DNA from: an unicellular cyanobacterium SU3
GTDB taxonomy: Bacteria; Cyanobacteriota; Cyanobacteriia; Cyanobacteriales; Microcystaceae
Reading direction: 5' to 3'
Assembly: GCA_002172675.1 (NCBI GenBank)
Contig: NETF01000166.1
Span: 1-58,582 of the forward strand
DNA length: 58,582 nucleotides
Part shown: positions 13,387 to 32,346 of the stretch, one piece after another
How the letters are laid out: each line of letters starts with the position of its first letter
How positions within the stretch are numbered: the first letter of the stretch is position 1
The notes under the pieces: generated by a model
What the model was told of the DNA's origin: nothing
What the model saw: only the letters and a program-made list of their open reading frames with translations
The model's database searches: none
Program-made: the position numbers and the translations under genes

Positions 13387-13589
13387 CGCTAATTCCGTTA
13401 CACTCCTTCGATATTCTTTATAGGTTAGCAAGGAACTCAGCGATCGGGTGAATTTGTCGACAAATGATGATATTTATTATTTCTTTGTTTTGAAGTAATG
13501 AGAGATTTATGTTTATTTATTAATTGAGATTTTTTCATTATAATCTGAATGTTATTATTAAACAGAACTGTAAGATATTTTATTATTTT

Positions 13590-13972
13590 ATGTCAACCAA
13601 TTATATTAAGCAAATTAATCATATTTTGAAACCCAAACCTTTGAAATCTCATCTTGTTTTAGATTTATTTGCAGGATGTGGTGGTTTATCTTTGGGATTT
13701 GAAGCACAAGGATTTGAGACTTATGGATTTGAAAAAGATGAAGATTGTTGTCATAGTTATGAAAACAACTTATAGGGACAATGTGAGCAAATAGAGTTAA
13801 CCGTTAATAGTAAATTACCAACTGTCTCCGTTATTATAGGTGGGCCACCTTGCCAACCCTTTAGTGTTGGGTGAAAACTGAAAGGTTTAAGAGATTCAAG
13901 AGATGGCTTTCCCATTTTTATCAATACAATCAAACAAGTAAACCCTGATATTTTGATAGGTTTATTCCAATA
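13590..13972 (+). pseudogene. Decayed DNA (cytosine-5) methyltransferase
   Basis: The reading frame starts MSTNYIKQINHILKP and has motif I as LDLFAGCGGLSLGFEAQGF. It is broken by TAG at 13773, continues in the same frame to the catalytic motif IV GGPPCQPFS at about 13842, is broken again by TGA near 13872, passes the conserved DSRDGFP segment and then ends at a TAA with no later motifs. Only about the first third of a C5 methyltransferase remains. The two in-frame stops are point substitutions, so decay is recent enough for the frame to be fully readable. It is probably the relic of a restriction-modification system. Confidence 0.9.
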
Positions 13973-14003
13973 AATAATAACAAGAAAATTACGCTCACAA
14001 AGT

Positions 14004-14636
14004 TCAATCAAGACTTTCTTCTTGATTTGATACCCATTCAAATTCTTCGTGAACAATATTAATCGGAAAATTTAAACGATTACTAATCTCATCAACTAAC
14101 CAGTTCATTTCAGTTTCATCTAGATTAAATGAGGTTTGTTTACTAAGACTATATTCTTTTGTTTCAGTTTCAATAATGAGGTCATAGGCAAAAGTACGGT
14201 CGTTAATTGCCTGAAAATAGAGATTTTTAGCAATAAACCTCTTCATATATTTTAATGCTTTAAGCTCTTGTTTTGGGATAGAAATATTGACTTTTGGATC
14301 ATCTGAGAAAATAATATAGTCTACAATAATTATTTTTTCTGAATCAATAAGTAGATAACTTTTAGAAAAAAAGCCGTAAATAAAAATCCAGATACCAATA
14401 ACAATTACAGGGAACAAAACAAATAAGTAGGGAAGAAGAAAAACCTTGAGTATTGATTTAGAGGCAAAGAGAGCATAAATAAGGACAATAGCCTGTAATC
14501 CTCCCAGGATTATAAGACCTAGACCAGTAGTTGCTGTTACCATTCCCTGCTTATAAAATCCAGATATAGGGAATGAAATTTTTAAAGAATCGTTTACTTC
14601 CTGAGCAAATATTTTGTTAAATTTTAGATTTTTCAT
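14004..14636 (-). CDS. Hypothetical membrane protein with two TM helices
   Basis: A 210-residue protein from the ATG at 14636 (MKNLKFNKIFAQ); a further upstream in-frame start at 14714 adds 26 hydrophobic but poorly supported residues. Two transmembrane segments lie at about residues 35-85 (GLGLIILGGLQAIVLIYALF and FLLPYLFVLFPVIVIGIWIF). A soluble C-terminal half follows, rich in acidic residues and beta-strand-like stretches, resembling bacterial PH-like domains in pattern only. I do not recognise the family. It lies between relics of a methyltransferase and another gene on the opposite strand, so it may be part of a mobile or decaying region. Confidence 0.6.
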   Translation of the reverse strand: MKNLKFNKIFAQEVNDSLKISFPISGFYKQGMVTATTGLGLIILGGLQAIVLIYALFASKSILKVFLLPYLFVLFPVIVIGIWIFIYGFFSKSYLLIDSEKIIIVDYIIFSDDPKVNISIPKQELKALKYMKRFIAKNLYFQAINDRTFAYDLIIETETKEYSLSKQTSFNLDETEMNWLVDEISNRLNFPINIVHEEFEWVSNQEESLD

Positions 14637-14714
14637 AATATACAAAATTTTTAATAGTACATCTAAAAAAAGTTTTATAGTCTCAATTATTTCTTGAAGT
14701 AAAATAAATGACAA

Positions 14715-15192
14715 GTCAGTTGTTAAGCGAAGTTACCTTAAAAAGAGTTAAATAAAAGTAGATTTATTACTATAAACATTTAAACTATTTCTTCTCGTGA
14801 CAACTTCAATTAATTCATCTTCTATCTTATCACCCTTCAAAAATACAGCTTGATTATCACTATTGAACGAAGAAGCTAGGACGTAAACCTAAGTTAGTTA
14901 CCAAATCATTATTAATGGGATCATTCCTACCTTAAAATATTATCTAAGATTATTATTATCTGTCGAAAATTTTATTAATAACTACTCAAACTTAATAGAA
15001 TCAGATCCAGAATTACAAGCCATTCATAAGATACAATGGAACGAAATATTATCAAAATTAGAAAGATAATAAACGGCACGATATTGACTAATGTGAATAA
15101 AACTAAAACTTTGACCTATTCCGTTGTTAACTCAAATATAATAAATTGAGTTGTTTTATTATGTTCTTAATGTCATTATTCAATAGAACTAT
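14715..15192. other. Spacer with a decayed gene copy
   Basis: About 480 bases. Positions 14893-15095 hold remnant copy A (separate entry). A minus-strand frame at about 14751-14890 (ending in VYSNKSTFI) is readable but has no start codon and may be another fragment. An inverted repeat AACTCAA/TTGAGTT lies at 15129-15152, just beyond the devA stop, and may act as a weak terminator. Confidence 0.5.
14893..15069 (+). pseudogene. Gene remnant copy A (C-terminal end only)
   Basis: The plus-strand frame encodes a C-terminal piece containing FINNYSNLIESDPELQAIHK and ending NEILSKLER-stop, with no start codon. A close relative is at 24455-24733 (copy B), and similarity runs about 25 bases past both stops. 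The parent family is not recognised. Its position behind the dead methyltransferase makes a restriction-endonuclease origin possible, but that is inference only. Confidence 0.6.
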
Positions 15193-15909
15193 CTAAATCG
15201 GATTAGGAGTTAAACGGCCATCTTCCATGTAAATAATTCGATGAGCGATGTCAAGAATGCGATTATCATGAGTAACCATAAGGATAGTACAACCTTGTGC
15301 TTTAGCCAAATTCTGCATTAATTCTACTACATCTCTTCCAGATTTTTTATCAAGTGCAGCAGTCGGTTCGTCTGCCAAAATAATTTTAGGGTTACTGGCC
15401 AAAGCACGAGCGATCGCGACTCTTTGTTTTTGTCCACCGGATAAATTTTCTGGATAATAATCAACTCTATGGCCTAAACCAACTGCTTCTAATATAGATT
15501 GCGCTTGACTATCAAGATTTTGATCTAGCAAATGATCATGAAGTTCTAAAGATAGACGCACATTCTGTTTTGCTGTTAAAAACATCATTAAGTTATGAGC
15601 TTGAAAAATATAACCAAGTTGTTTACGAAGTTTGGTTAATTGTTTTTTGTTCGCTCCACGGATTTGCTCCCCCAAAATTTTTAGACTTCCTTCTTGAGCA
15701 GAACGTAACCCCCCCATTAAAGTGAGTAGAGTGGTTTTACCAGAACCAGAAGGACCAGTAAGGATGACAATTTCCCCTAGATGAATATTGAGATTAATAT
15801 CAAATAAGATTTGTTTACGAAGTTTTCCTTCACCAAAATAGTGATTAAGAGAAGCAATAGAGATAACAGGTTCTACTGAATTGATCAAGTTAGATGAAAG
15901 ACCTTGCAT
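15193..15909 (-). CDS. devA: DevA-type ABC exporter ATPase
   Basis: A 238-residue ATP-binding subunit of the MacB/LolD/DevA class that powers DevC. Walker A is TGPSGSGKTT near residue 54, the signature LSGGQKQRVAIARAL near 157 and Walker B IILADEPTAALD near 178, all intact. It is the last of seven minus-strand genes; the devC stop is 20 bases upstream. In Anabaena the related DevBCA/HgdBCA complex exports heterocyst glycolipids through a TolC-like pore. Here, with lipid-synthesis genes upstream, export of a lipid is inferred. Cytoplasmic face of the inner membrane. Confidence 0.9.
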   Translation of the reverse strand: MQGLSSNLINSVEPVISIASLNHYFGEGKLRKQILFDINLNIHLGEIVILTGPSGSGKTTLLTLMGGLRSAQEGSLKILGEQIRGANKKQLTKLRKQLGYIFQAHNLMMFLTAKQNVRLSLELHDHLLDQNLDSQAQSILEAVGLGHRVDYYPENLSGGQKQRVAIARALASNPKIILADEPTAALDKKSGRDVVELMQNLAKAQGCTILMVTHDNRILDIAHRIIYMEDGRLTPNPI

Positions 15910-15929
15910 AGATTAAACTATCCTTAAAA

Positions 15930-17093
15930 TTAAAAAATATCGGCTGGATCAGCTAATCGAAGTTTATTCATAGCGATTACCCCCGAAATAGCACACATAA
16001 TAATGGTTAAAATTAGCACAATAAAAGCGCGGCCAACTTTCATCATAATGGGTAATTGAGTAGAAACAGAACCTACTTGATATATGCCTAGAGATAATAC
16101 AAAACCGGGAATATAACCCAAAATTGCTAATAATAATGCAGATTTGATCAAGACACTCAATAAATAACCATCACTGTAACCCATTGCTTTGAGAGTAGCG
16201 TATTCTGGCAAGTGATCTGATACATCAGAATAAAGAATCTGATAAACAATTACAACACCCACAATAAAACCGACCATTACTCCTAATTCAAAGATAAAAC
16301 CAATCCCTTGACTAGACCAATAATTCACTTCATTTTGAGCTAACTCAGAGGGAGTAATGACTTTAACATCTTCAGGTAAATTAGCAATCATTTGTGCTTG
16401 AACTGCTTTAATATCTGTTCCGGGTTTAAGTTTAATTAATCCCAAAGAAATATCGTTAGGTTGCTGATTAGGAAAGAGGTTCAAAAAAGTAGAATCACTC
16501 ATAATTACGTTACCATCGGTAACAAAAGAAGCTCCTAAATTAAATAAACCAACTACATTTACAGTTTTCTCATTTATTTGAATATCTACTTTTTCTTGCT
16601 CTTTTACTAAGTGGAGTATTGGTCCATATTCAGGTCGAGATCCTTGATCAAATAATACATTATTGAGTAATTTTAATTGAGATTGATTATCTTTAATTTC
16701 AGGAAAAGAAAAAGGTGAGTTAACTGGATCAATTCCCCAAACTAAAATATTACGGCTAAGCTGAGTTTCAGGATTACGCCACTGAGCAAACTTGATATAG
16801 ACGCTTGATACTGATTCAACTCCCTCATAAGCTAAGGTTTGCTGTAGTCTTTCTCTAGGAAAATCTTTGACTAAAAATAATGTTTGGAATTGAGAGTTAG
16901 CTAATACGAGATCCCCTTGTAAAATCCGATGAGATTTAGCAGAGCCATCAAGAAGAGCGTCTAAGATTCCCAATTGAAAAAAAATCAGAATATCAGCAAA
17001 AGCAATCCCTGCTATTGCAACACTCAGACGTATTTTGTCTTTAATTAATTGATGCCATGCTATAGGAGTTTTCCGAAAAAATTTAGGAGACAT
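15930..17093 (-). CDS. devC: DevC-type ABC exporter permease
   Basis: A 387-residue FtsX-like permease of the DevC family. The first TM helix is at about residues 22-45, a large periplasmic domain of roughly 200 residues follows, and three TM helices lie near the C-terminus (GFIFELGVMVGFIVGVVIVY and two more). Length and layout match Anabaena DevC. It is expected to pair with the adjacent ATPase and membrane-fusion protein. It is 46 bases downstream of devB and 20 upstream of devA, consistent with one operon. No truncation or frameshift is seen. Confidence 0.9.
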   Translation of the reverse strand: MSPKFFRKTPIAWHQLIKDKIRLSVAIAGIAFADILIFFQLGILDALLDGSAKSHRILQGDLVLANSQFQTLFLVKDFPRERLQQTLAYEGVESVSSVYIKFAQWRNPETQLSRNILVWGIDPVNSPFSFPEIKDNQSQLKLLNNVLFDQGSRPEYGPILHLVKEQEKVDIQINEKTVNVVGLFNLGASFVTDGNVIMSDSTFLNLFPNQQPNDISLGLIKLKPGTDIKAVQAQMIANLPEDVKVITPSELAQNEVNYWSSQGIGFIFELGVMVGFIVGVVIVYQILYSDVSDHLPEYATLKAMGYSDGYLLSVLIKSALLLAILGYIPGFVLSLGIYQVGSVSTQLPIMMKVGRAFIVLILTIIMCAISGVIAMNKLRLADPADIF

Positions 17094-17139
17094 AAATAAT
17101 TAGCAATTTTGGGTATATAAATGGAAGATTCTAGGTCTT

Positions 17140-18438
17140 TTATTCTTGAAGATTAATCTCAATTTGAACTTGCAAATTAGTTAAACTAGCCACTTTTTGA
17201 GCATCTTGAGGATCAAGGCGTATTTTCACTTCTATCACTCGGCGATCGAGATTTTCTCCAGGTTGAGTGCTAAAAACATTTTGCTTGCTAACCTGTAAAC
17301 CAATTTGAGAAACAGTGCCTTTTAATTGACCCGAAAAAGCTTGTCCTGTAATAACAGCTTCTTGTCCTATTTTTACCTTTTCAATATCAGTTTGATAGAT
17401 TTCTGCCACAGCAATCATATCCTTAGTTTGTCCTAATTCTAGTAAACCAGCATCCCCAATTTTTTCGCCAACTCTTGTATGAATTTTAATAATTTGTCCA
17501 GTGATAGGACTTTTTATATAGACTTGATTTAAGTCGGTTTTTGCTTGTTGTAAATTAGCAAAAGCATTATCAACTTCAGCTTGAGCTACTTGTATATCGA
17601 CTGGACGAACTTCAGAAACTTGGTTAAGTGTAGCCTTTTCTTGTTGAATTTGTTGAGTTCCCGTTGCTAGAGTACGGTTTAAATTAGCTTGAGCTTGTTG
17701 GAGCTGTTTTTGATAAGTCGTGATGATACGATTGAGATTAGCTTGAGATTCATTTATACTTTCTTGAAGCGTTTTTTGTCTGAGACATTTACTCTCATAA
17801 TCAGAAAGAGAAACCACACCATTTTGATATAAAGTCTGATAACGTTGACACTCAGCTTCAGCATTTTCTAATTCTGCTTGTAAGCGAGAAATAGTTGCTT
17901 TTTCTGTTGCTGTTTCTCCCGATAACTGAGCTTCTAATTTAGCAAGATTGGCCTTTTGTTCTTTTATTTGCCCATCCAAATCAGCTTTAATTCTGGAAAT
18001 TATTGATTTTTGTGCATCAATTTCTCCAATTTTAGCACCAGCTTTAACTTGAGACAGACGCGCTTGAGCTATTTTTAACTGTTCTTGAGCTTGTGTTACT
18101 ACTGATTGTAAGCGACTACGAGAATCCAAAATAGCGATTACTTGATTAGCTGATACTTTTGATCCTTCTTGAACTAATAATTGTTCAACTCTGTCCCCTT
18201 GTAGAGGTAAAGGTACATCGAGACGAATGATCTCGTTTTCGGGTTCTAATCTTCCTAAAGCAGCAACTTGCGTAAGAGGAGGAATTGTTGCTTTGGACTC
18301 TTTGACCGGGGAACGACTTCCTTGGGAGGGCAGAAATTGATAAACAACAGCAGCACTGGCTATAGTTGTAGCAGCGACAGCAAGGGCTAAAATCCAGCGT
18401 CCATGATAAATATGCTTGGAGGATGAATCAGTTTTCAT
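17140..18438 (-). CDS. devB: DevB-type HlyD-family membrane-fusion protein
   Basis: A 432-residue periplasmic adaptor. One N-terminal TM helix (about residues 14-33) is followed by a lipoyl half (VEQLLVQEGSKVSANQVIAI near 85-105). A long alpha-helical hairpin rich in Gln, Ala and Glu spans about 110-300, then comes the second lipoyl half and a beta-barrel with KSPITGQIIKIHTRVGEKIG near 310. This is the canonical order for HlyD/DevB adaptors, which bridge the inner-membrane pump to a TolC-type outer-membrane channel. It is the first of the three exporter genes. No TolC homologue lies in the window, so the outer-membrane partner must be elsewhere. Confidence 0.9.
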   Translation of the reverse strand: MKTDSSSKHIYHGRWILALAVAATTIASAAVVYQFLPSQGSRSPVKESKATIPPLTQVAALGRLEPENEIIRLDVPLPLQGDRVEQLLVQEGSKVSANQVIAILDSRSRLQSVVTQAQEQLKIAQARLSQVKAGAKIGEIDAQKSIISRIKADLDGQIKEQKANLAKLEAQLSGETATEKATISRLQAELENAEAECQRYQTLYQNGVVSLSDYESKCLRQKTLQESINESQANLNRIITTYQKQLQQAQANLNRTLATGTQQIQQEKATLNQVSEVRPVDIQVAQAEVDNAFANLQQAKTDLNQVYIKSPITGQIIKIHTRVGEKIGDAGLLELGQTKDMIAVAEIYQTDIEKVKIGQEAVITGQAFSGQLKGTVSQIGLQVSKQNVFSTQPGENLDRRVIEVKIRLDPQDAQKVASLTNLQVQIEINLQE

Positions 18439-18536
18439 AGTGAGTTGAGTCTTTCCGTGTTGTTTTTTTTGGATAAGTGGTAATCATATTTTTATGGTGT
18501 GGACAAGAGACGATTTGTATCGTGTTTCAGTAAGCA

Positions 18537-19193
18537 CTAGGTAATCATATGAATAAGAGAATCAATAATCAAGATCAAACCAAAAATAATAGCAATAACT
18601 CGCATGATTTTAGGAATCCATCTGTTAACGAATCGATGAATAGAATCCAGTACAAAGGCAGATTTTTTCTGAAAAAAGAGATAGGTAAATAACAAGATAA
18701 TCAAAGGAAAGACAAACACAATATTATAAATAGTGAGACAACCTATTATTTGATAAGAAGAGAGATTTGCTTGTACAATTATTTCAATGGCAGCTAAATA
18801 TGGTAGTGCAGTAGGTGCTTCGGAAAAGGCAATCGTTCCTCCTAGTAAAAATGCCTGAGTTGGTTGAATCTGCTTAAGATTTTTAGTATTTTTTGACTTG
18901 CTAAAAACTTTAGGGAAATAACAACCAAGTAATACTAAGGCAATACCTAATAGAAACTTAAGCCAATAAATTATTTCAGTAAAACGGCTAAATATTTGAG
19001 AGATTACTTGAGTTAATCCAAAGGTAATTAGCAAACCAGCTATGAAAGTTGCCAGAAAATCCCCAACGATAAAAGCAAGAGAGCGCTTTATCGGTTTGGG
19101 TGTACTTAGCAAATAAATCTGTACCGCTACAGCATTGGGATTAATACTATCAATTAAGGCAATCATCACTATAGAAGTCAGTACAGTATTCAT
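18537..19193 (-). CDS. GAP-family six-helix membrane protein
   Basis: A 218-residue protein with six hydrophobic segments spread over its length. The opening ALIDSINPNAVAVQIYLLST followed by a K-P-rich turn is the mark of the GAP/Sap family. Mycobacterial members (Gap for glycopeptidolipid, Sap for sulfolipid-1) are needed to place complex lipids on the cell surface. It sits between the methyltransferase and the devBCA genes on the same strand. An inner-membrane role in delivering the cluster's lipid to the exporter is an inference from family and context. Confidence in the family is good, in the role moderate. Confidence 0.8.
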   Translation of the reverse strand: MNTVLTSIVMIALIDSINPNAVAVQIYLLSTPKPIKRSLAFIVGDFLATFIAGLLITFGLTQVISQIFSRFTEIIYWLKFLLGIALVLLGCYFPKVFSKSKNTKNLKQIQPTQAFLLGGTIAFSEAPTALPYLAAIEIIVQANLSSYQIIGCLTIYNIVFVFPLIILLFTYLFFQKKSAFVLDSIHRFVNRWIPKIMRVIAIIFGLILIIDSLIHMIT

Positions 19194-19276
19194 CTTTTTG
19201 ATCCAAATAAGGCTTCATGAAGGGTTTTTCCCATACTAATATCATGTTGGGATAATTGCCTATAATAAAACCTAAA

Positions 19277-20212
19277 TTATTTTTTTCTGATAAAGATCAG
19301 ATATTCAGAAAATGTTCCTTTTTTAATAAAATTCAATAAAGATAAACTTAATTTTCTTAGTATATAAGAAAAGGGATATAACATTAAGCTATCAATAATG
19401 GTTTTTTCTTCTATGAGCCTTTCTAAGCACATTTTAAAAGCGACTAAGGTGATATCTTTATATTCAACATCTACTTTTCCTGAATATTTACTGATAATAT
19501 TGTTAATATCATCAAAATTAGGTGCATAAGGTGCTACTAAAAGATTAGCCGCTAAACTTTCTTGCCAAGAAGAGGGTTTTTGATTGATGGTTTGAGTATG
19601 AACCACTAGAATCCCCTCATTATGCAAAGATTGAAAACAGTTTTCAAAGATATCACGAAATTGTTGAACAGTTAAATCTTGAGTAACATCAATAATATAT
19701 ACTTTATGAAATTTTCTCTTAACAATTTCCTGTAATTGATAATTTCTAGACTGTCTTAACCTTGTTGCATCCCCAACAAAAAAATTGGATTTTTCTTGAT
19801 TAAACGTATTTTGCTTAGCTTTTTTAATATGTTCTTTCAATAGATCAATTCCAGTTATAGAATTAATATCAGGATATTTTTTGAGGCAATAGGAGACTAA
19901 CCCCCCAAGACCACAACCTACGTCGAGAATATCTTGTCCTTCTTGAGGATTATCATAAGCAAATACATAATCTAGTATTCGTTTTGTTGGAGAAACTTTA
20001 GGGTATTGATCCCACATTCCTGGCATTATTTTTATATCCTGAGAGCCAGGAACAATATAGGGTAATACATAATCTAGCCAAGCATATATTTTGTCGTAAC
20101 TATCTTGATTTTGTTTTGGATTAATTAGAGCAATAATCAGTTGAATAAAAAGTAATGTCCCCTTAAAACGGTTCATTTTTTCTTCTTTTAATAATAGGGT
20201 TGTCGTCATCAT
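19277..20212 (-). CDS. SAM-dependent methyltransferase of the lipid cluster
   Basis: A 311-residue class I methyltransferase. Motif I is ILDVGCGLGGLVSYC near residue 97, the acidic end of strand 2 is ITGIDLLKEH near 122, and VGDATRLRQ follows. The first 35 residues include a hydrophobic stretch (GTLLFIQLIIALI) that may dip into the membrane, fitting a lipid substrate. AAGGAG lies 6-7 bases before the ATG at 20212 and decides this start over an internal Met at 20176. It is the third gene of the cluster. The methyl acceptor (hydroxyl, amine or carbon) cannot be read from sequence. Confidence 0.85.
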   Translation of the reverse strand: MMTTTLLLKEEKMNRFKGTLLFIQLIIALINPKQNQDSYDKIYAWLDYVLPYIVPGSQDIKIMPGMWDQYPKVSPTKRILDYVFAYDNPQEGQDILDVGCGLGGLVSYCLKKYPDINSITGIDLLKEHIKKAKQNTFNQEKSNFFVGDATRLRQSRNYQLQEIVKRKFHKVYIIDVTQDLTVQQFRDIFENCFQSLHNEGILVVHTQTINQKPSSWQESLAANLLVAPYAPNFDDINNIISKYSGKVDVEYKDITLVAFKMCLERLIEEKTIIDSLMLYPFSYILRKLSLSLLNFIKKGTFSEYLIFIRKK

Positions 20213-20471
20213 TATTCTCCTTAGTAAGCTTAGACAGATTTAGTGTGTATGATTCAATTAGCCACAGTAAGGGTTTAAGGTGTTGAAAAACGCAGGTTAA
20301 ATGCGTCTGAGCTTAAAACTTTTGTTTGGCTGGTTTGTTATAGCAATCCCAAATTACTTGTGAGAATCGGTTTAGCTCAGGAAGTCTAATCTTTTTATAC
20401 TTATTCTCACCATTCATCTAGGATTGCTAGAGTAAAGTATTGGTTTTGATGTAAAAAATGAATTTTAAGCC
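20213..20471. other. Spacer with a long hairpin inside the lipid cluster
   Basis: A 259-base gap between two co-oriented genes, unusually wide for this cluster. It holds an inverted repeat element at 20341-20429 (separate entry). No reading frame of note. It might contain an internal promoter for the methyltransferase-exporter part. Confidence 0.5.
20341..20429. repeat. 89-base imperfect hairpin element
   Basis: Outer arms TAGCAATCC (20341-20349) and GGATTGCTA (20421-20429) are perfect complements, and inner arms GTGAGAAT (20360-20367) and ATTCTCAC (20403-20410) also pair at matching distances. The whole can fold into one long stem. It resembles a MITE relic or an RNA-processing hairpin. No second copy was noticed in the window. 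Confidence 0.7.
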
Positions 20472-21794
20472 TTAAAATTGATAACGCTTGCGTACTTTTT
20501 TAAGGGCTTTAACAAAACCGTCGATGTCTGATTCTGTATGTTTATTGTTGATCATCAAGCGAATTAAAGCCTTACCTCGCTCAACAGCAGGATAGCGAAA
20601 TACAGGAATACAGTAACCCATTTCCAGTAAATCTCGACGCACCTGTTCGGCGATTTCATCCTCACCAATAACAATGGAAGTAATGTAAGAAGGTACATCA
20701 TTGAGATGGAAACCTAAATTAATTAGCGTTTCTCGCAATTTTGAACAGCGTTTTAGATAATTATCCATGATTTGGGGATTGTTCTCCAAGTGCTGTATAA
20801 TTTCGAGATTCGTAGCAGCCGTTGGGGGTTGCATGGTTGCTGTAAATAAGGAAGTACCCGAGAGAATCTCAAAAGATTTGACAAATTCTGCAGGTCCACT
20901 AATTGCACCCCCTTCGATTCCGACAGCTTTGGAGAAAGACACCATAATAAAAGTGGCTCTGCGTAAAGCTTGGTACTCTTGATAAAAAGGTCGATTAGGA
21001 GTGCCATAAATCATAAATCCGTTAGCATCATCAACATAAGATAACGCTCCATAACGCTCACAGATGTCGATTAATTCACCCACAGGTGCAACACTACCAT
21101 CAGAAGAATAGACGGTTTCAAAAACCACAATAATCTTCGATGATTTAATCTTCTTTAACACTTGCTCAAGAGAAGAAGGATCATTATGCTTAAAAGCAAA
21201 GACTTGAGAACCAAACTTTCGGTGAGCAAGAGGATTCCATAAACTCCAGTGACAATCGCGATCTAAAACAAAAATAACATCCTGATTATCGATGGTAACA
21301 CTTGCATCAAAGCCAAAAGCACTGGTCATCGCATTGATAAAACCAATATTAGCTAAAGCCCCTGTCCCAAAGGTTAAAGTATAATCTTTTTGCCAAATTT
21401 CGTTCATCTTTTGTTCAAGTAAAAGATGGGGACGGGAAACCCCTTGAGTCAGACGAGAGCCTCCTGTCGCTAAACCATATTGGCGAGTGTTTTGACAAAA
21501 ATACTCGAGGAATTGATCTTCTTGTTGGAGTCCGAGAAAATTAATTCCTGATAAATTAATCATTTCCCGACCATTCCGTTTGATGTGAGAACCACTCATC
21601 CCCTCCATAACCGGAATACCGTTATCAAGAAGAAATCCTGCGGCCTCAGCATCATCGAGAAATTTTTTGTGATCCCATTGACGAGGTTTCCCTGATAGAG
21701 ACAGAGAATCAGATTTTTCTGCCAGTAGTTGTTTCAAAAAATCACGCTTTTGAGCAGATGAAAACGAATTTAAAGTATTAAGATTGGTAGTCAT
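20472..21794 (-). CDS. PLP-dependent alpha-oxoamine synthase homologue
   Basis: A 440-residue fold-type I PLP enzyme of the BioF/KBL/SPT/ALAS family, which condenses an acyl thioester with an amino acid to give an aminoketone. GGSRLTQGVSRPHLLLE is near 111-127, a PLP-stacking His182 lies in DRDCHWSLWNP, and Lys289 in MVSFSKAVGIEGGA is the Schiff-base lysine. The PLP-binding motif normally D-E/D-A/S-H reads D255-D-A-N258, replacing the conserved histidine. Members start 18 bases after the acyl-AMP ligase/ACP gene, with AGGAG upstream of the ATG. With no other biotin gene nearby and an ACP next door, a lipid aminoketone is a better guess than biotin synthesis. Confidence 0.88.
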   Translation of the reverse strand: MTTNLNTLNSFSSAQKRDFLKQLLAEKSDSLSLSGKPRQWDHKKFLDDAEAAGFLLDNGIPVMEGMSGSHIKRNGREMINLSGINFLGLQQEDQFLEYFCQNTRQYGLATGGSRLTQGVSRPHLLLEQKMNEIWQKDYTLTFGTGALANIGFINAMTSAFGFDASVTIDNQDVIFVLDRDCHWSLWNPLAHRKFGSQVFAFKHNDPSSLEQVLKKIKSSKIIVVFETVYSSDGSVAPVGELIDICERYGALSYVDDANGFMIYGTPNRPFYQEYQALRRATFIMVSFSKAVGIEGGAISGPAEFVKSFEILSGTSLFTATMQPPTAATNLEIIQHLENNPQIMDNYLKRCSKLRETLINLGFHLNDVPSYITSIVIGEDEIAEQVRRDLLEMGYCIPVFRYPAVERGKALIRLMINNKHTESDIDGFVKALKKVRKRYQF

Positions 21795-21812
21795 AATTCA
21801 ATTGTCTCCTGT

Positions 21813-24110
21813 CTATTTAGATAAGATAGAACTGAGTAAAGCATCGACTTCTTCATCAGTAAGTTGGTCTATGTGTTCAGTCGATGCCAAACGAGTCTCT
21901 GAGATTTTTTCGGTCAAAAGTGCTGTTAAACCAGCAACACTAACACCTTCAATGAAATTCTCCATAGGGATTTCAACTCCCCAGTTGGTGTTAAACAGAT
22001 GATTTAATTCAGCAGCGATCAACGAATCAAACCCGACATTTTCTTGAATGTCTATGTTTTCACAAGCCGTTTCCTTGAGTTCTGCAAATTTAGCAATCAA
22101 CCATTGTTCAATATCTTCATAAGTCTGCAATAAGGATTGATTACCGTTATAATCAGACGATTCTGATGGTTGCGAAAAAGTTATGACCTTTTCTAACAAA
22201 GAATCAACATCTGATTCTAGTTCTCTGAATCCCTTTGTTTGAGAGGGAATTTTGCTCCAATCGGCAATAATATCAAGGGTTCGGGCTAGAAAACCAGCCC
22301 GACAAGCCGTGCGTTGAATCTTACCACTAGACGTTTTAGGGATACTGGCTGTTTTGAGAAGTGCCACAGCATAAATATCTAATTCATGTTCTTGGAGAAC
22401 AGCGTGAATCATTTGCTGAATGACTTCTTGAGAGTTTAATTTACGCAGATATCTCCGCTCCACTTCTTGAACAACCACTAGCCTCTCTTGACCAGCTATT
22501 TCAATGGAAAATGCAGCACCATAATCTTTGCGGAATGCGGGGTTGCTTTGTTGGACGGTGAATTCAATGTCTTGAGGTTGGTGGTTACGTCCTCGAATAA
22601 TAATTAAATCCTTCAGTCTGCCCGTAACAAATAACTGACCTTCAAGTAAAAATCCTAAATCTCCCGTTCTCAGAAATGGGCCAATCTGCTGATTTTCTGC
22701 TAAATAATAAGCCTTAAAGGTTTGTTCTGTCTGTTCGGGTCGATTCCAATAACCCCGAGCCACACTCTCATTAGATACCCAAATCTCTCCTACTTGTCCC
22801 TGTGGACATTTGGTTAAAGATTCAGGATTGACAATGACGATTTTTTCGTCTAACCAAGCCCAACCACAACTGACCACTAATTGAGCATCAGGGTGTTGAG
22901 AGTCAAGAGTAACAACCTTATTATCTAAAAGAGCGTTTTTATCAACCCCTTGGATAACAGGGGTTTTGTGTTTAGTTGCTCCTGATAAAAATAAAGTTGT
23001 CTCCGCCATTCCATAGCAAGGATAAAACGCTTTCGGATTAAAACCGCAATCAGCAAAAGTAGTGGCAAATTTTTCTAAGGTTGCGGCTCGAACGGGTTCT
23101 GCTCCGGTAAATGCCACATCCCAATGACTTAGATCTAGGGTTTCTCTCTCTTGAGGTGTGATTTTAGAAACACACAATTCATAAGCAAAATTAGGGCCAC
23201 CACTGGTGGTACCTTTGTAACGGGAAATCCCTTGCAACCATCGGATGGGCTTTTGGATAAATGCCTCGGGAGGCATAATTACACAGGGAAATCCTCGATA
23301 AATAGGTTGTAAAACATTGCCAATTAGTCCCATATCATGGAACAATGGCAACCAACCCACTCCAATTGTCTCTGTGCTATGACCAAAGGCCATCTTGATC
23401 AATTTGCTATTGTGCAGCAAATTTTGATGAGTGACCATAACGCCTTTAGGCGTACCTGTTGAGCCAGAGGTATATTGCAAAAAAGCAATGTCTTCTTTTG
23501 AGAGATCGGGTTTGTACCAGTTTAGTGCCTTTTCTTGAGTGATGTTATCAGTCCCTAATAGAGGCACTTTTTCTAATTCAGGTGAGCTAGAAAATTTCGC
23601 CTCAATACTACTTAATAAGGAATTAGTGGTTAAAGCAAGTTTAGCTTGAGCATCCTTAACAATCGCTTGTAGTCGAGAGAGCTTTTGATTACGTCGAGGA
23701 GGATAAACCGGAACTGGATTGACCCCCGCGTATAAACAGCCAAAGAAAGCAGTGATAAATTCTAAGCCCGATGGATACAGTAATAAAACCCTTTCTCCTT
23801 GAGAAAGATTTGATTGTAGTTGAGCTGCGATCGCTTTTGCTCGTTGCTCTAACTGTTGGTAACTCACTCTAGCTGATTCTGTTTCTCCATCTAGTAAAAA
23901 AATATAAGCTATTTGGTCTGGTTGATGTAAGGCTCGATACTCCAAAATATCAACAAAAGTAGCAATAGAGTTCAGATTTTCCAGAACTTCTCCTAAACTA
24001 TTCAAACCTAAAACAGGACTACTATCCTGATTATTTCCAAAGCACGATCGCCGATCATTACCTATAGAATAAGGTTTATGATCAGCAAATTCAAGAGATT
24101 GCTGCTTCAT
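21813..24110 (-). CDS. Fatty-acyl-AMP ligase fused to acyl carrier protein
   Basis: A 765-residue two-domain protein. Residues about 50-600 form an adenylating domain of FAAL type: the ATP loop LQYTSGSTGTPKGVMVTH near 212, GWLPLFHDMGLIG near 253, TSGGPNFAYELC near 307 and GAEPVR near 340. Residues about 660-745 form a carrier domain with GFDSL, in which Ser696 should carry phosphopantetheine. FAALs activate free fatty acids as acyl-adenylates and load them on an ACP, here in the same chain. It is the first gene of a seven-gene minus-strand set and most likely supplies the acyl thioester to the adjacent oxoamine synthase. Fatty-acid length is unknown. Confidence 0.93.
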   Translation of the reverse strand: MKQQSLEFADHKPYSIGNDRRSCFGNNQDSSPVLGLNSLGEVLENLNSIATFVDILEYRALHQPDQIAYIFLLDGETESARVSYQQLEQRAKAIAAQLQSNLSQGERVLLLYPSGLEFITAFFGCLYAGVNPVPVYPPRRNQKLSRLQAIVKDAQAKLALTTNSLLSSIEAKFSSSPELEKVPLLGTDNITQEKALNWYKPDLSKEDIAFLQYTSGSTGTPKGVMVTHQNLLHNSKLIKMAFGHSTETIGVGWLPLFHDMGLIGNVLQPIYRGFPCVIMPPEAFIQKPIRWLQGISRYKGTTSGGPNFAYELCVSKITPQERETLDLSHWDVAFTGAEPVRAATLEKFATTFADCGFNPKAFYPCYGMAETTLFLSGATKHKTPVIQGVDKNALLDNKVVTLDSQHPDAQLVVSCGWAWLDEKIVIVNPESLTKCPQGQVGEIWVSNESVARGYWNRPEQTEQTFKAYYLAENQQIGPFLRTGDLGFLLEGQLFVTGRLKDLIIIRGRNHQPQDIEFTVQQSNPAFRKDYGAAFSIEIAGQERLVVVQEVERRYLRKLNSQEVIQQMIHAVLQEHELDIYAVALLKTASIPKTSSGKIQRTACRAGFLARTLDIIADWSKIPSQTKGFRELESDVDSLLEKVITFSQPSESSDYNGNQSLLQTYEDIEQWLIAKFAELKETACENIDIQENVGFDSLIAAELNHLFNTNWGVEIPMENFIEGVSVAGLTALLTEKISETRLASTEHIDQLTDEEVDALLSSILSK

Positions 24111-24196: not shown

Positions 24197-24226
24197 ACTC
24201 TACAATCAGTATTATCTTTTTGTCAA
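24197..24226 (-). promoter_or_regulatory. Probable sigma-70 promoter of the lipid cluster
   Basis: On the minus strand TTGACA (24226-24221) is followed after 18 bases by TAGAGT (24202-24197), a consensus -35 and a fair -10. Transcription would begin near 24190, about 80 bases before the acyl-AMP ligase ATG. Spotted by eye only. Confidence 0.45.
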
Positions 24227-24454: not shown

Positions 24455-24733
24455 TCAAGAATACTCGCCGTTACCGTATCTTTTTCTCTGCTAATATTAA
24501 AGTCGAACAATCAAAACTTATTCAACTATAAATCAAACAGATAAGAAAAACTCACGGCTACCAAGTTATTTTTAATGGTATTATTTCCACTTTAAAATAC
24601 TATCTTGCTTAGACGTTTAATATCCGTTGAAAAATTCATTAATAACTACTCAAACTTAGTTGAATCTGATCCAGAATTACAAGCCATTCATAAAATAAAA
24701 TGGAAGGAAATCTTATCTAAAGTAGAAAGATAA
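24455..24733 (+). pseudogene. Gene remnant copy B
   Basis: The plus strand reads SANIKVEQSKLIQL, a stop, then IRKTHGYQVIFNGIISTLKY, a frameshift near 24608, and finally a frame with FINNYSNLVESDPELQAIHK ending KEILSKVER-stop. It matches copy A at 14893-15069 closely in its last 45 codons and reaches further upstream. At least one stop and one frameshift show it is dead. Family not recognised. Confidence 0.6.
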
Positions 24734-24775
24734 TCAACCCCACGATATTAACTAATCCTAACAACCTAGAACTTT

Positions 24776-30016: not shown

Positions 30017-30104
30017 ATTAAATTGAGTTAGTTTTTCCTTTATTGGGATAAAATCAAAATGTATCTGAGTTAAATGATCTCAGTTGTTATTATCATTCAT
30101 TAAA

Positions 30105-30767
30105 ATGCAATATGAAATTCGGTATAAACCAGCTTTTGCTGCTATCTTTGTCACCTTGGCACCGGGTGAAAGTATCATAGCAGAAGCCGGAGCCATGGCC
30201 AGTATGGATGGTCGTTTATCCATGAAAACAAAACTATCTGGTGGGTTTTTTGCAGCCATATTACGAAAATTTTTGGGGGGAGAATCCCTGTTTGTTAATG
30301 TCTTCAAAAATGCAACGTCTCAACCCTTAACCCTCGTTTTAACCCAATCCATTATAGGCGACGTTGAATCCTTAGAATTAAGAGGCGATGAAATCTGTTT
30401 TCAACCCGGTGCATACATCGCCAGTAGTCCTAAAATTAACCTAGGCGTACGTTGGGCTGGTTTTGCCAGTTGGTTTGCAGGAGAAGGGTTATTTAAGTTA
30501 AAAGTGAGTGGTCACGGAACCGTCTTTTTCGGAGCTTATGGCGGTATCAGTCAACAAACGGTTACAGGGGAATTTATTGTCGATAATAGTCATTTAGTCG
30601 CCTATAGCCCCGGAATTAAGATGAGTATTGGCTTATCCGGCGGATTAATCGGTTCTATGACTTCTGGTGAAGGATTAGTCAACCGTTTAAAAGGAAATGG
30701 CGTGATTTATCTGCAATCTCGTAGTGTTAGCGGTTTAGTGGGATTTTTACGCCCTAAAGTGAAGTAA
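30105..30767 (+). CDS. AIM24 / TIGR00266 family protein, copy 1
   Basis: 220 residues, all beta-rich, of the AIM24 (TIGR00266) family, named from a yeast mitochondrial protein and of unclear biochemical role in bacteria. The family marks are present: E-A-G-A-M-A-S-M near residue 28, GGESLFVNVF near 58 and IVDNSHLVAYSPGIK near 160. The start ATG at 30105 (MQYEIRYKP) matches the other two copies in alignment; an upstream TTG is rejected. It is the first of three tandem paralogues and ends five bases before the second. Confidence 0.85.
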   Translation: MQYEIRYKPAFAAIFVTLAPGESIIAEAGAMASMDGRLSMKTKLSGGFFAAILRKFLGGESLFVNVFKNATSQPLTLVLTQSIIGDVESLELRGDEICFQPGAYIASSPKINLGVRWAGFASWFAGEGLFKLKVSGHGTVFFGAYGGISQQTVTGEFIVDNSHLVAYSPGIKMSIGLSGGLIGSMTSGEGLVNRLKGNGVIYLQSRSVSGLVGFLRPKVK

Positions 30768-30772
30768 TAATC

Positions 30773-31450
30773 ATGGATATTCAATTAATACATCAACCCG
30801 ATAGTGCGATCGCAAAAGTGATCTTAAATGCAGGTGAAGAAATTGTTGCTCAAGCTGGCGCAATGGTGGCCATGAGTGGCTTTATCAACACCAGTACCAC
30901 CCTCAGACAAGGAAAAGGTGGGGGCATTATGGGAGGATTTAAACGAATGTTAGGGGGAGAATCTCTCTTTTTAAGTGTATTTCGTTCCCCCACTGCAGAG
31001 GGAGAGGTATTTCTCGCCCCTAGATTGATGGGTGATATCTTAGTTTATGAGATGCAAGGTCAAGAATTAGTGGTACAAGCCGCTTCTTATTTAGCCTCTG
31101 CTAACGATGTAGACCTTGATTTAGGATTTCAAGGGATGAAATCTTTATTTTCTGGAGAATCCATTTTTTGGCTGAGTGTCACAGGATACGGCCCGGTTAT
31201 TTTAACCTCCTTTGGCGGTATTTACGAAATCGAAGTGGATGGGGATTATGTGGTAGATACCGGTCATATTGTCGCCTTTGAGAGAAGTTTAGATTTTCGC
31301 ATTGATAAAGCCAATACCAGTTGGTTAGGGGCATTTTTTGGAGGTGAAGGATTTATTTGTCGTTTTCATGGCAAGGGTAAAGTCTATTGTCAAACCCATA
31401 ACCCCGGCAGTTTTGGGTCTATTGTTGGTTCTCAATTACCACCTAAGTAA
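30773..31450 (+). CDS. AIM24 / TIGR00266 family protein, copy 2
   Basis: 225 residues, homologous over its length to its neighbours. It has AQAGAMVAMSGFINT near residue 26, RMLGGESLFLSVFRS near 58, FSGESIFWLSVTGYG near 120 and VVDTGHIVAFERSLD near 160. It sits 5 bp after copy 1, so both are surely on one transcript. Copies 2 and 3 share the MLGGESLF form, whereas copy 1 has FLGGESLF, so 2 and 3 seem closer. No signal peptide or TM helix. Function unknown; conserved gene triplets suggest a hetero-oligomer, an inference. Confidence 0.85.
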   Translation: MDIQLIHQPDSAIAKVILNAGEEIVAQAGAMVAMSGFINTSTTLRQGKGGGIMGGFKRMLGGESLFLSVFRSPTAEGEVFLAPRLMGDILVYEMQGQELVVQAASYLASANDVDLDLGFQGMKSLFSGESIFWLSVTGYGPVILTSFGGIYEIEVDGDYVVDTGHIVAFERSLDFRIDKANTSWLGAFFGGEGFICRFHGKGKVYCQTHNPGSFGSIVGSQLPPK

Positions 31451-31465
31451 CCTGAGCAGGGAGCA

Positions 31466-31566
31466 GAGGGAGTGGGGAAGCAGGGAGCGAGGAGAAGGGA
31501 GCAGAGGGAGCGGAGGAAGCAGAGGAAGATTAAAACTATTGCCTATTGCCTCTTGCCTCTTGCCTC
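31466..31566. repeat. Purine-rich and STRR repeats between AIM24 copies 2 and 3
   Basis: A degenerate G/A-rich run built on GGGAGCAG-like units (31455-31530) is followed by four TTGCCTA/TTGCCTC heptamers at 31539-31566. It separates copy 3 from the first two AIM24 genes. Confidence 0.8.
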
Positions 31567-31647
31567 TTGCACTTAGACATTGCTCAGTGTAAACCTTTTG
31601 CCTTTCGCGTAGCGGTATAGTTCTTTATTATTTCAGGTAAATTTTAG

Positions 31648-32346
31648 ATGTCAAACATTGCTTATCAAATCGAACATTCTCCGGCTTATGCTTCATTAAT
31701 TCTTGATTTGCGTCCTCAGCAAACGGTTTTAGTGGAAGCTTCGGCCATGGCTGCGATGGACACTTCTATAAAAATGAAATCTAAGGTGAAAGGCGGATTA
31801 ATGAAAGGGTTAGGCCGAATGTTAGGGGGAGAATCCCTTTTTATTAATCAATTTACCGCCGAAAATAATTCAGGAAGACTCTATATTTCCCCTGGCGTTC
31901 CTGGAGATATTCAACACTATTCTATGGAAAGTCGTTGCGGTTTATTAGTGCAATCATCGGGGTTTGTTGCTTGTAGCGATACGGTAGAAATGGATACCCA
32001 ATTTCAAGGATTTAAAGGGTTTTTTAGTGGAGAATCTTTATTCTTATTAAGAGCCACAGGACGGGGGGATTTGTGGTTTAGTTCTTATGGGGCTATTTTA
32101 GAAGTTCCTGTTAAGAATAACTATGTAGTTGATACCAGTTATGTGGTCGCTTTTGAAGATACTTTAAACTATAATGTAGAAATGATTGGCGGTTTATCCT
32201 TTAGAAATTTCAAAACAGGAATTTTGGGGGGTGAAGGGTTAGTTTGTCGCTTTAGTGGTCAAGGCCGTTTATGGATTCAAAGTCGTGCTATTTATCCTTT
32301 ACTCAACTTTTTACGTCCCTTTCGACCAACAAAAAGTAGTGATTAA
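31648..32346 (+). CDS. AIM24 / TIGR00266 family protein, copy 3
   Basis: 232 residues. It shares VEASAMAAMDTSIKM near residue 30, RMLGGESLFINQF near 58, FFSGESLFLLRATGRG near 118 and VVDTSYVVAFEDTLN near 160 with the two copies before it. It is parted from them by a 200-base repeat-filled gap and may have its own promoter, though none was recognised. No TM helices. As for the others, the beta-rich fold suggests a scaffold or lipid-associated role, unproven. Start is the ATG at 31648, in register with the paralogues. Confidence 0.85.
   Translation: MSNIAYQIEHSPAYASLILDLRPQQTVLVEASAMAAMDTSIKMKSKVKGGLMKGLGRMLGGESLFINQFTAENNSGRLYISPGVPGDIQHYSMESRCGLLVQSSGFVACSDTVEMDTQFQGFKGFFSGESLFLLRATGRGDLWFSSYGAILEVPVKNNYVVDTSYVVAFEDTLNYNVEMIGGLSFRNFKTGILGGEGLVCRFSGQGRLWIQSRAIYPLLNFLRPFRPTKSSD

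What the first reader, a model, noticed from the sequence alone, without database searches (positions are those of the whole stretch)
15193..24110. Seven-gene cluster that looks like a lipid-aminoketone synthesis and export system
Seen: seven same-strand genes in the order FAAL-ACP, alpha-oxoamine synthase, SAM methyltransferase, GAP-family membrane protein, DevB, DevC, DevA, behind one likely promoter. Known: FAALs load fatty acids on ACPs, alpha-oxoamine synthases condense acyl thioesters with amino acids, GAP proteins place lipids on mycobacterial surfaces, and DevBCA exports heterocyst glycolipids. Inference: together they make and export a methylated long-chain aminoketone or sphingoid-like lipid. 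I know of no described pathway with this gene set in a non-heterocystous cyanobacterium.
Basis: partly seen in the sequence, partly recalled or inferred. Interest (0 to 1): 0.78.

Follow-up and report, generated by a model that had tools for sequence, protein, structure and literature searches.

The report
Cyanobacterial cluster for exported amino lipid
Seven neighbouring genes in a relative of the cyanobacterium Microcystis probably build a long-chain amine lipid from a fatty acid and an amino acid and ship it out of the cell, which a simple lipid analysis could test.

Summary
In detail: seven same-strand genes fill 24110-15193 (FAAL-ACP, oxoamine synthase AOS, methyltransferase, SfLAP/GAP protein, DevB, DevC, DevA). 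The AOS is not BioF: the genome has another BioF above the curated cut-off. It belongs to a separate AOS subfamily.

Of 50 family genomes the AOS is in 3, and SfLAP passes its cut-off in exactly those 3, one or two genes from the AOS. FAAL-ACP adjoins AOS in 2 of 3; DevBCA shares the cluster in 2 of 3. Tailoring genes differ: a methyltransferase here, an SxtG-like amidinotransferase plus reductase in Microcystis wesenbergii, a reductase in the third. Same-genus relatives lack the block.

Best reading: acyl-ACP plus amino acid gives a long-chain 2-aminoketone, its head is modified, and SfLAP plus DevBCA export it. Amino acid, methyl site and product are unknown. This is a new variant of known AOS lipid pathways; it fails the sequence tests for serine palmitoyltransferase and lacks the saxitoxin-type amidinotransferase.

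The parts
21813..24110 (-). FAAL-ACP fusion: fatty acyl-AMP ligase with C-terminal acyl carrier domain (765 aa)
   Evidence: PF00501 249 bits, PF23024, PP-binding; NCBIfam FAAL models FadD32/FadD21/FadD28 462/371/326 bits, all below their own cut-offs; PDB 7r7e ('Polyketide synthase') 658 bits, FadD32 351 bits
21915..22058 (-). acyl carrier domain of the FAAL-ACP (Pfam match, residues 685-732), serine of GFDSL at residue 696
20472..21794 (-). alpha-oxoamine synthase of a separate subfamily (440 aa); K289, H182-W183-S184, D255-D-A-N258-G
19277..20212 (-). class I SAM methyltransferase (311 aa), substrate unknown
   Evidence: CMAS 47.5 bits and others; weak PDB hits to phosphoethanolamine N-methyltransferases, best 5.5e-7; matched only itself among 388 sampled order genomes
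18537..19193 (-). SfLAP/'GAP' family membrane protein (218 aa)
   Evidence: PF11139 117 bits vs cut-off 35; over cut-off in 3 of 50 family genomes, the same 3 as AOS
17140..18438 (-). DevB-type membrane fusion protein
   Evidence: TIGR02971 339 vs 129 bits
15930..17093 (-). DevC-type ABC permease
   Evidence: TIGR01185 469 vs 290 bits; closest G018 copy is the one in its AOS cluster, 62% vs at most 49% for 6 others
15193..15909 (-). DevA-type ABC ATPase
   Evidence: TIGR02982 367 vs 296 bits
14944..15092 (+). left direct repeat: resembles the 3' end of the DNA methyltransferase gene at this site in relative G004
24608..24756 (+). right direct repeat, 85% identical to the left copy, same orientation
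13524..13953 (+). remnant of a cytosine DNA methyltransferase-like gene, cut short by a stop; a longer ORF lies there in G004 (family named from its motifs, recalled)
24197..24226 (-). promoter-like site upstream of FAAL-ACP, not better than chance

Best explanation
The block is an acquired pathway for an exported long-chain amino lipid. (1) FAAL activates a fatty acid as acyl-AMP and loads it on its own ACP domain. (2) The AOS, with PLP, condenses acyl-ACP with an amino acid and releases CO2, giving a long-chain 2-amino-3-ketone. (3) The methyltransferase methylates it, most likely on the new amine, because genes in its place in related clusters would also act on that head (amidinotransferase, reductase). 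(4) The SfLAP/GAP protein and the DevBCA pump, with a TolC-type outer channel presumably encoded elsewhere (not searched), move the lipid across the envelope. Shown here: the gene content, the separate AOS subfamily, the co-occurrence with SfLAP and in part with DevBCA, and the absence of the block in relatives. Inferred from family knowledge: all four chemical and transport steps. The amino acid is open.
For: Gene families and order. Not BioF: 227.5 bits vs cut-off 426, while G000:C4 carries one at 432.9. FAAL-ACP (74%) and AOS (89% over 307 residues) are adjacent in M. wesenbergii. AOS-SDR-ORF-SfLAP-TetR-DevB-DevC-TMEM175-DevA lie on one strand in G018. SfLAP over cut-off in 3 of 50 family genomes, the same 3 that have the AOS, one or two genes away. 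The amidinotransferase after the M. wesenbergii AOS is nearest to SxtG, 456 bits, which fits an amine-bearing core product. Acyl-ACP feeding an AOS is established for Caulobacter SPT (PMC9386255, passages). DevBCA exports a lipid in Anabaena (PMC8277102, passages).
Against: G018 has no FAAL in its cluster. M. wesenbergii has DevBCA at a separate locus, and its AOS is split over two contig ends. AOS relatives outside cyanobacteria sit with SMR or MFS exporters and GNATs, pointing to small or N-acylated products there. The methyltransferase has no relative in the sample and could act on something else. The SDRs of the two related loci score higher on general SDR models than on the ketosphinganine-reductase model. 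In G017 a decayed SfLAP lies between DevC and DevA without any AOS, so SfLAP may go with DevBCA rather than with AOS. Base composition does not set the block apart.
Confidence: 0.6

Rival explanations
1. It makes true sphingoid bases: the AOS is a serine palmitoyltransferase and the product feeds ceramides.
For: Foldseek's best match of the AOS model is SPT 2x8u; SDRs in two relatives hit the ketosphinganine-reductase model at 211 and 126 bits, cut-off 400; acyl-ACP-fed SPTs exist (PMC9386255, passages).
Against: The three SPT models hit in NCBIfam are far below cut-off (198 vs 500, 155 vs 640, 147 vs 670); that reductase model ranks third and ninth among the SDR models hit; no GNAT or reductase in the window cluster; the AOS model is modest (pLDDT 66) and Foldseek ranks SPT, KBL, ALAS and BioF almost equally.
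Confidence: 0.12
2. The AOS uses arginine or another cationic amino acid, as the saxitoxin starter enzyme is held to do, and the product is a guanidino-alkyl ketone amphiphile.
For: SxtG-like amidinotransferase beside the AOS in M. wesenbergii; SugE-like (1 of 1 Negativicutes SMR scanned with NCBIfam) and Qac-like (Eleftheria) exporters beside AOS relatives; arginine is a building block of saxitoxin (PMC4740887, passages).
Against: No homologue of that amidinotransferase in the window; it can equally act on the amine made from any amino acid; I compared no SxtA sequence.
Confidence: 0.15
3. A short-range signal: an aminoketone or hydroxyketone autoinducer like CAI-1 or LAI-1, exported by the pump.
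For: AOS similarity to CAI-1 synthase chains, best 2e-23; small-molecule exporters beside AOS relatives.
Against: 137 vs cut-off 428 on the autoinducer-synthase model; no sensor kinase among the seven genes; a lipid-type export set would be unusual for a signal.
Confidence: 0.08
4. Two unrelated units side by side: FAAL-AOS-MT for one product and SfLAP-DevBCA for another cargo.
For: SfLAP remnant with DevC/DevA but without AOS in G017; 259-bp gap between AOS and MT; DevBCA not beside AOS in M. wesenbergii.
Against: SfLAP is near the AOS in 3 of 3 loci, once without DevBCA beside it; SfLAP over cut-off only in the AOS genomes, 3 of 50; no minus-strand terminator-like site in the gaps.
Confidence: 0.15

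Closest known systems
Caulobacter-type sphingolipid start: AasR acyl-ACP synthetase, AcpR, SPT (PMC9386255, passages)
   Same: A dedicated ligase charges a dedicated ACP, and a PLP oxoamine synthase uses the acyl-ACP.
   Different: Here ligase and ACP are one FAAL-type protein, the AOS is below the SPT cut-offs, and a methyltransferase, SfLAP and DevBCA follow.
Saxitoxin first steps (SxtA AOS domain, SxtG amidinotransferase; roles recalled; PMC4740887 passages, PDB 6u1r hit)
   Same: Acyl-ACP plus amino acid to aminoketone; in M. wesenbergii an SxtG-like amidinotransferase follows.
   Different: A FAAL-ACP supplies the acyl group, and no such amidinotransferase lies in the window. SxtA was not compared.
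DevBCA-HgdD heterocyst glycolipid exporter (PMC8277102, passages)
   Same: DevB, DevC and DevA all above their curated cut-offs.
   Different: Other biosynthetic neighbours; DevBCA paralogues also export other cargo, so cargo cannot be read from the family.
Mycobacterial Gap/Sap (SfLAP, PF11139) lipid-addressing proteins
   Same: Pfam 117 bits vs cut-off 35.
   Different: The other six genes were not matched to a mycobacterial lipid cluster above any cut-off; the mycobacterial function is recalled.
Cyanobacterial BioF (Npun_R3567 and kin, PMC8895605, passages)
   Same: Same AOS superfamily.
   Different: Window AOS falls outside the family's BioF rows with 100/100 support and the genome has a separate BioF.

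Membership tests
BioF (biotin) | NCBIfam TIGR00858 cut-off 426.45 bits | tested here: not met
   227.5 bits; another gene in the genome scores 432.9
Serine palmitoyltransferase | NCBIfam SPT models over cut-off | tested here: not met
   198/500, 155/640, 147/670 bits
Serine palmitoyltransferase | uses L-serine and makes 3-ketosphinganine | not testable with these tools
   needs enzyme assay
alpha-oxoamine synthase superfamily | fold-type I PLP enzyme with catalytic Lys, PLP-binding Asp and stacking His | tested here: met
   K289, D255, H182 present in 11 of 11 subfamily rows; PDB ALAS/SPT hits to 1.5e-40; Foldseek 1e-25. Roles of these residues are recalled.
CAI-1/LAI-1 autoinducer synthase | NF005526 cut-off 428 bits | tested here: not met
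   137 bits
FAAL | similarity over the ligase part to solved FAALs | tested here: met
   FadD32 351, FadD23 332, FadD28 235 bits; best 7r7e 658 bits, called 'Polyketide synthase' in the PDB
FAAL | NCBIfam FAAL models over cut-off | tested here: not met
   FadD32 462/975, FadD21 371/1100, FadD28 326/1100; these models are named for single FadD proteins
FAAL | FAAL-specific insertion and rejection of CoA | not tested
   not measured
DevBCA exporter | TIGR02971, TIGR01185, TIGR02982 over cut-off | tested here: met
   339/129, 469/290, 367/296 bits
DevBCA exporter | exports heterocyst glycolipid | not testable with these tools
   cargo is not readable from sequence
SfLAP/GAP | PF11139 gathering score 35 | tested here: met
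   117.1 bits
Saxitoxin start module | SxtG-type amidinotransferase in the cluster | tested here: not met
   no homologue of the M. wesenbergii amidinotransferase in the window at E <= 1e-3 (tblastn); present in the M. wesenbergii locus

The most novel reading that the evidence does not exclude
These loci are one family of cyanobacterial pathways for cationic long-chain lipids: a core (HWS-type AOS and SfLAP, usually with FAAL-ACP and DevBCA) that is fitted with swappable head-group enzymes (methyltransferase; SxtG-like amidinotransferase plus reductase; reductase plus an unknown membrane protein), so that different strains coat themselves with, or secrete, methylated-amino or guanidino lipids. 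It would be a lipid-scale cousin of the saxitoxin opening steps.
Probability: 0.35. Interest if true: 0.8.

Novelty: new variant of a known kind. Interest (0 to 1): 0.58.

Why it matters
Sphingolipid-like amines in cyanobacteria are an open matter: PMC8895605 (passages) reports none in Nostoc punctiforme and no AOS there besides BioF. This cluster names a concrete second AOS, its likely acyl donor and its likely exporter in Microcystis and relatives, and gives a simple test by LC-MS. It also links SfLAP proteins, known to me from mycobacteria, to a DevBCA pump, which suggests that the two work as one lipid-export unit. The exchange of tailoring genes shows how a cationic lipid head could be varied between strains.

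Tried and rejected
BioF was rejected. Promoter: the number of promoter-like hits equals shuffles, so none is claimed. The methyltransferase fold from a single sequence failed (pLDDT 35) and was not searched. The 430-aa ORF of the G018 cluster looks to me, by eye, like an arginase/deacetylase-type protein, but Pfam and NCBIfam gave no family and the PDB search nothing better than E 0.27, so it carries no weight. I looked for the amino acid from residues around S113, H182 and N258 and could not decide it. I had expected an ACP before the AOS in Negativicutes; of the 5 loci scanned there 4 have an SMR exporter and 1 a regulator.

Literature (10 searches): 10, 54, 55 and 78 (FAAL or AOS combinations) returned 0 papers. 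14 (6 papers), 28 (8), 56 (20 listed of 65), 66 (1), (10 of 16; 10 of 16) listed none that, by title and start of abstract, describes this gene set. Only the open-licence library was searched; four papers were opened, passages only.

That G018 is a Gloeothece/Cyanothece-type strain is a guess from genome size.

Dropped rows: L026, L032 and L033 (similar to L025, L023 and L029 in layout) were left out of alignment A2 and the tree, and their neighbours were not scanned; the M. wesenbergii AOS piece was in A2 but not in the tree. The genome-contig scan used two peptide patterns, so it is not exhaustive.
Full report
Observation. The seven genes are present at exactly the stated coordinates, all on the minus strand, in the order FAAL-ACP, AOS, methyltransferase, SfLAP, DevB, DevC, DevA, with gaps of 18, 259, 83, 98, 46 and 20 bp. 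Pfam and NCBIfam support each name. The three Dev proteins pass their curated cut-offs and SfLAP passes Pfam's; the ACP domain passes only just (21.3 vs 20.8 bits) but has a GFDSL motif. Of the models it hits, the AOS passes only Pfam's general aminotransferase one. The promoter claim is weak: 34 promoter-like hits against 35.8 in shuffles; none of the 6 minus-strand terminator-like hits lies in a gap.

Is the AOS BioF? No. It scores 227.5 bits where the BioF cut-off is 426, and the same genome has a gene at 432.9 bits on contig C4. Among 27 AOS rows (25 different) the window protein falls in an 11-row group with 100/100 support, apart from the 16 other rows, which include the family's BioFs. 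The group has HWS at 182-184 and D-x-ANG at 255-259; none of the 16 others has HWS, and all 16 have His at the Asn258 position. A structure model of modest quality (pLDDT 66) matches SPT, KBL, ALAS and BioF about equally, so it confirms the superfamily and not the substrate.

Where else is it? At E <= 1e-50 the AOS is in 3 of 50 family genomes and 1 of 388 sampled class genomes (itself); at E <= 1e-60 in 3 of 388 sampled order genomes (the same three). It has no such match in the 8 other species of its genus. One two-pattern scan of species genomes gave 12 loci: M. wesenbergii (89%) and 11 of 48-57% identity from Pseudomonas, Cupriavidus, Ktedonosporobacter and Negativicutes. A plasmid search added Eleftheria terrae at 53% and a weak Agrobacterium hit at 27%.

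The three cyanobacterial loci. (a) Window: FAAL-ACP, AOS, MT, SfLAP, DevBCA. (b) G018, same family: AOS, SDR, a 430-aa ORF without Pfam match, SfLAP, TetR, DevB, DevC, TMEM175-like, DevA, one strand; no FAAL beside it, its best FAALs lying elsewhere at 56%. (c) M. wesenbergii FACHB-1317: FAAL-ACP (74%) and the first 307-312 residues of AOS (88-89%) at the end of one contig; the rest of AOS at the start of another, followed by an amidinotransferase (nearest solved protein SxtG, 456 bits), SfLAP and an SDR. The split may be an inserted repeat or an assembly break; that is not settled. Its nearest DevBCA is a separate TetR-DevBCA locus.

The reductases. The SDR of G018 scores 211 bits and that of M. 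wesenbergii 126 bits on the 3-ketodihydrosphingosine reductase model (cut-off 400). Two and eight other SDR models score higher, so the name is a hint only.

Strength of the link. SfLAP over cut-off occurs in 3 of 50 family genomes, exactly the AOS genomes, once each and one or two genes from the AOS; Fisher p = 5e-5, relatedness ignored. A fourth genome, G017, has a sub-threshold SfLAP (25 bits). I looked at it: fragments of an SfLAP gene, 50-62% identical to the window's over 32-60 residues, lie between DevC and DevA; no AOS and no DevB matched in that 19-kb stretch. This tells against AOS as the only partner of SfLAP, and for SfLAP and DevBCA as one export unit. DevC of the window is closest to the G018 cluster copy (62%) rather than to the 6 other G018 DevC matches (at most 49%).

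Neighbours outside cyanobacteria. Pseudomonas L023 and Cupriavidus: AOS, GNAT-type acyltransferase, MFS exporter. Negativicutes: an SMR exporter just before AOS in 4 of the 5 loci scanned (of 7 held); the fifth, Megasphaera, has a sensor kinase and regulator instead. The one SMR of these scanned with NCBIfam is SugE-like (124.1 vs cut-off 126). Eleftheria: AOS, methyltransferase, GNAT fused to an NAD/FAD-binding domain, SMR. Ktedonosporobacter: aromatic lyase, ACP, AOS, KAS III-like protein, AMP-binding ligase, then a P450. So an exporter is common next to this AOS, but the acyl donor varies, and a long chain is argued only from the FAAL-ACP of two cyanobacterial loci.

Origin of the block. 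In relative G004 the region between shc and lysC holds a 276-aa ORF with DNA methyltransferase motifs (named by eye) and a 729-aa protein with a C5 cytosine methylase domain (304 bits). Of 8 relatives fetched, 4 show the left flank and the lysC flank only 1.4-2.4 kb apart, against 10.5-11 kb in the window: G004 and G005 with shc itself, G006 and G008 with only the 0.4-kb methyltransferase piece. The other 4 show only the lysC flank in the stretch read. The window keeps a truncated piece of the first gene and two direct copies (149 bp, 85%) of the 3' end of the second, one on each side of the seven genes. The block is therefore most likely an insertion or replacement at a restriction-modification-type site; the mechanism is not shown, and base composition does not set the block apart.

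Mechanism. Shown: genes, co-occurrence, absence in relatives. Inferred from family knowledge: FAAL charges the ACP; AOS condenses acyl-ACP with an amino acid; MT modifies the product; SfLAP and DevBCA export it. Acyl-ACP as AOS substrate is documented for Caulobacter SPT (PMC9386255, passages), lipid export by DevBCA for Anabaena (PMC8277102, passages), with the caution that DevBCA paralogues there carry other cargo. N-methylation is my guess from the swapped tailoring genes and from weak similarity to phosphoethanolamine N-methyltransferases (5.5e-7).

Known or new. No paper in the searched library joins a fatty acyl-AMP ligase and an oxoamine synthase with the terms used (0 papers); the other searches listed none that describes this set by title and start of abstract. 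PMC8895605 (passages) found only BioF in Nostoc. I file it as a new variant of AOS-based lipid pathways.

Noticed in passing
window 13524-15092 and 24608-24756; L070 14522-17553: The site between shc and lysC looks like a restriction-modification hot spot: relative G004 carries DNA methyltransferase genes where the window carries the lipid block and their remnants.
   Followed up: yes
L022 4560-4742 and L036 1-110 (M. wesenbergii FACHB-1317): The AOS gene is split over two contig ends, perhaps by an insertion element; described only.
   Followed up: partly
L036 613-1734: An amidinotransferase closest to SxtG among solved proteins sits directly after the AOS in M. wesenbergii.
   Followed up: partly
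L093 9192-9649 (G017): A decayed SfLAP gene lies between DevC and DevA in a genome without the AOS; DevB was not found beside them.
   Followed up: partly
L020 16653-17945 (G018): A 430-aa protein with a hydrophobic N-terminal part (by eye) and no Pfam or NCBIfam match sits between the SDR and SfLAP genes.
   Followed up: partly
L038 14084-16522 (Eleftheria terrae): A GNAT domain fused to an NAD/FAD-binding domain follows the AOS and a methyltransferase.
   Followed up: no
L027 7995-16169 (Ktedonosporobacter rubrisoli): Aromatic amino acid lyase, ACP, AOS, KAS III-like protein, AMP-binding ligase and P450 genes lie close together: a possible aromatic aminoketone pathway.
   Followed up: no
window 14004-14714: A 236-aa ORF without Pfam or NCBIfam match, membrane-type by eye, lies downstream of DevA between the methyltransferase remnant and the left repeat.
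   Followed up: no
window 30084-32346: Two AIM24-family genes lie close together, upstream of an M48 peptidase gene.
   Followed up: no
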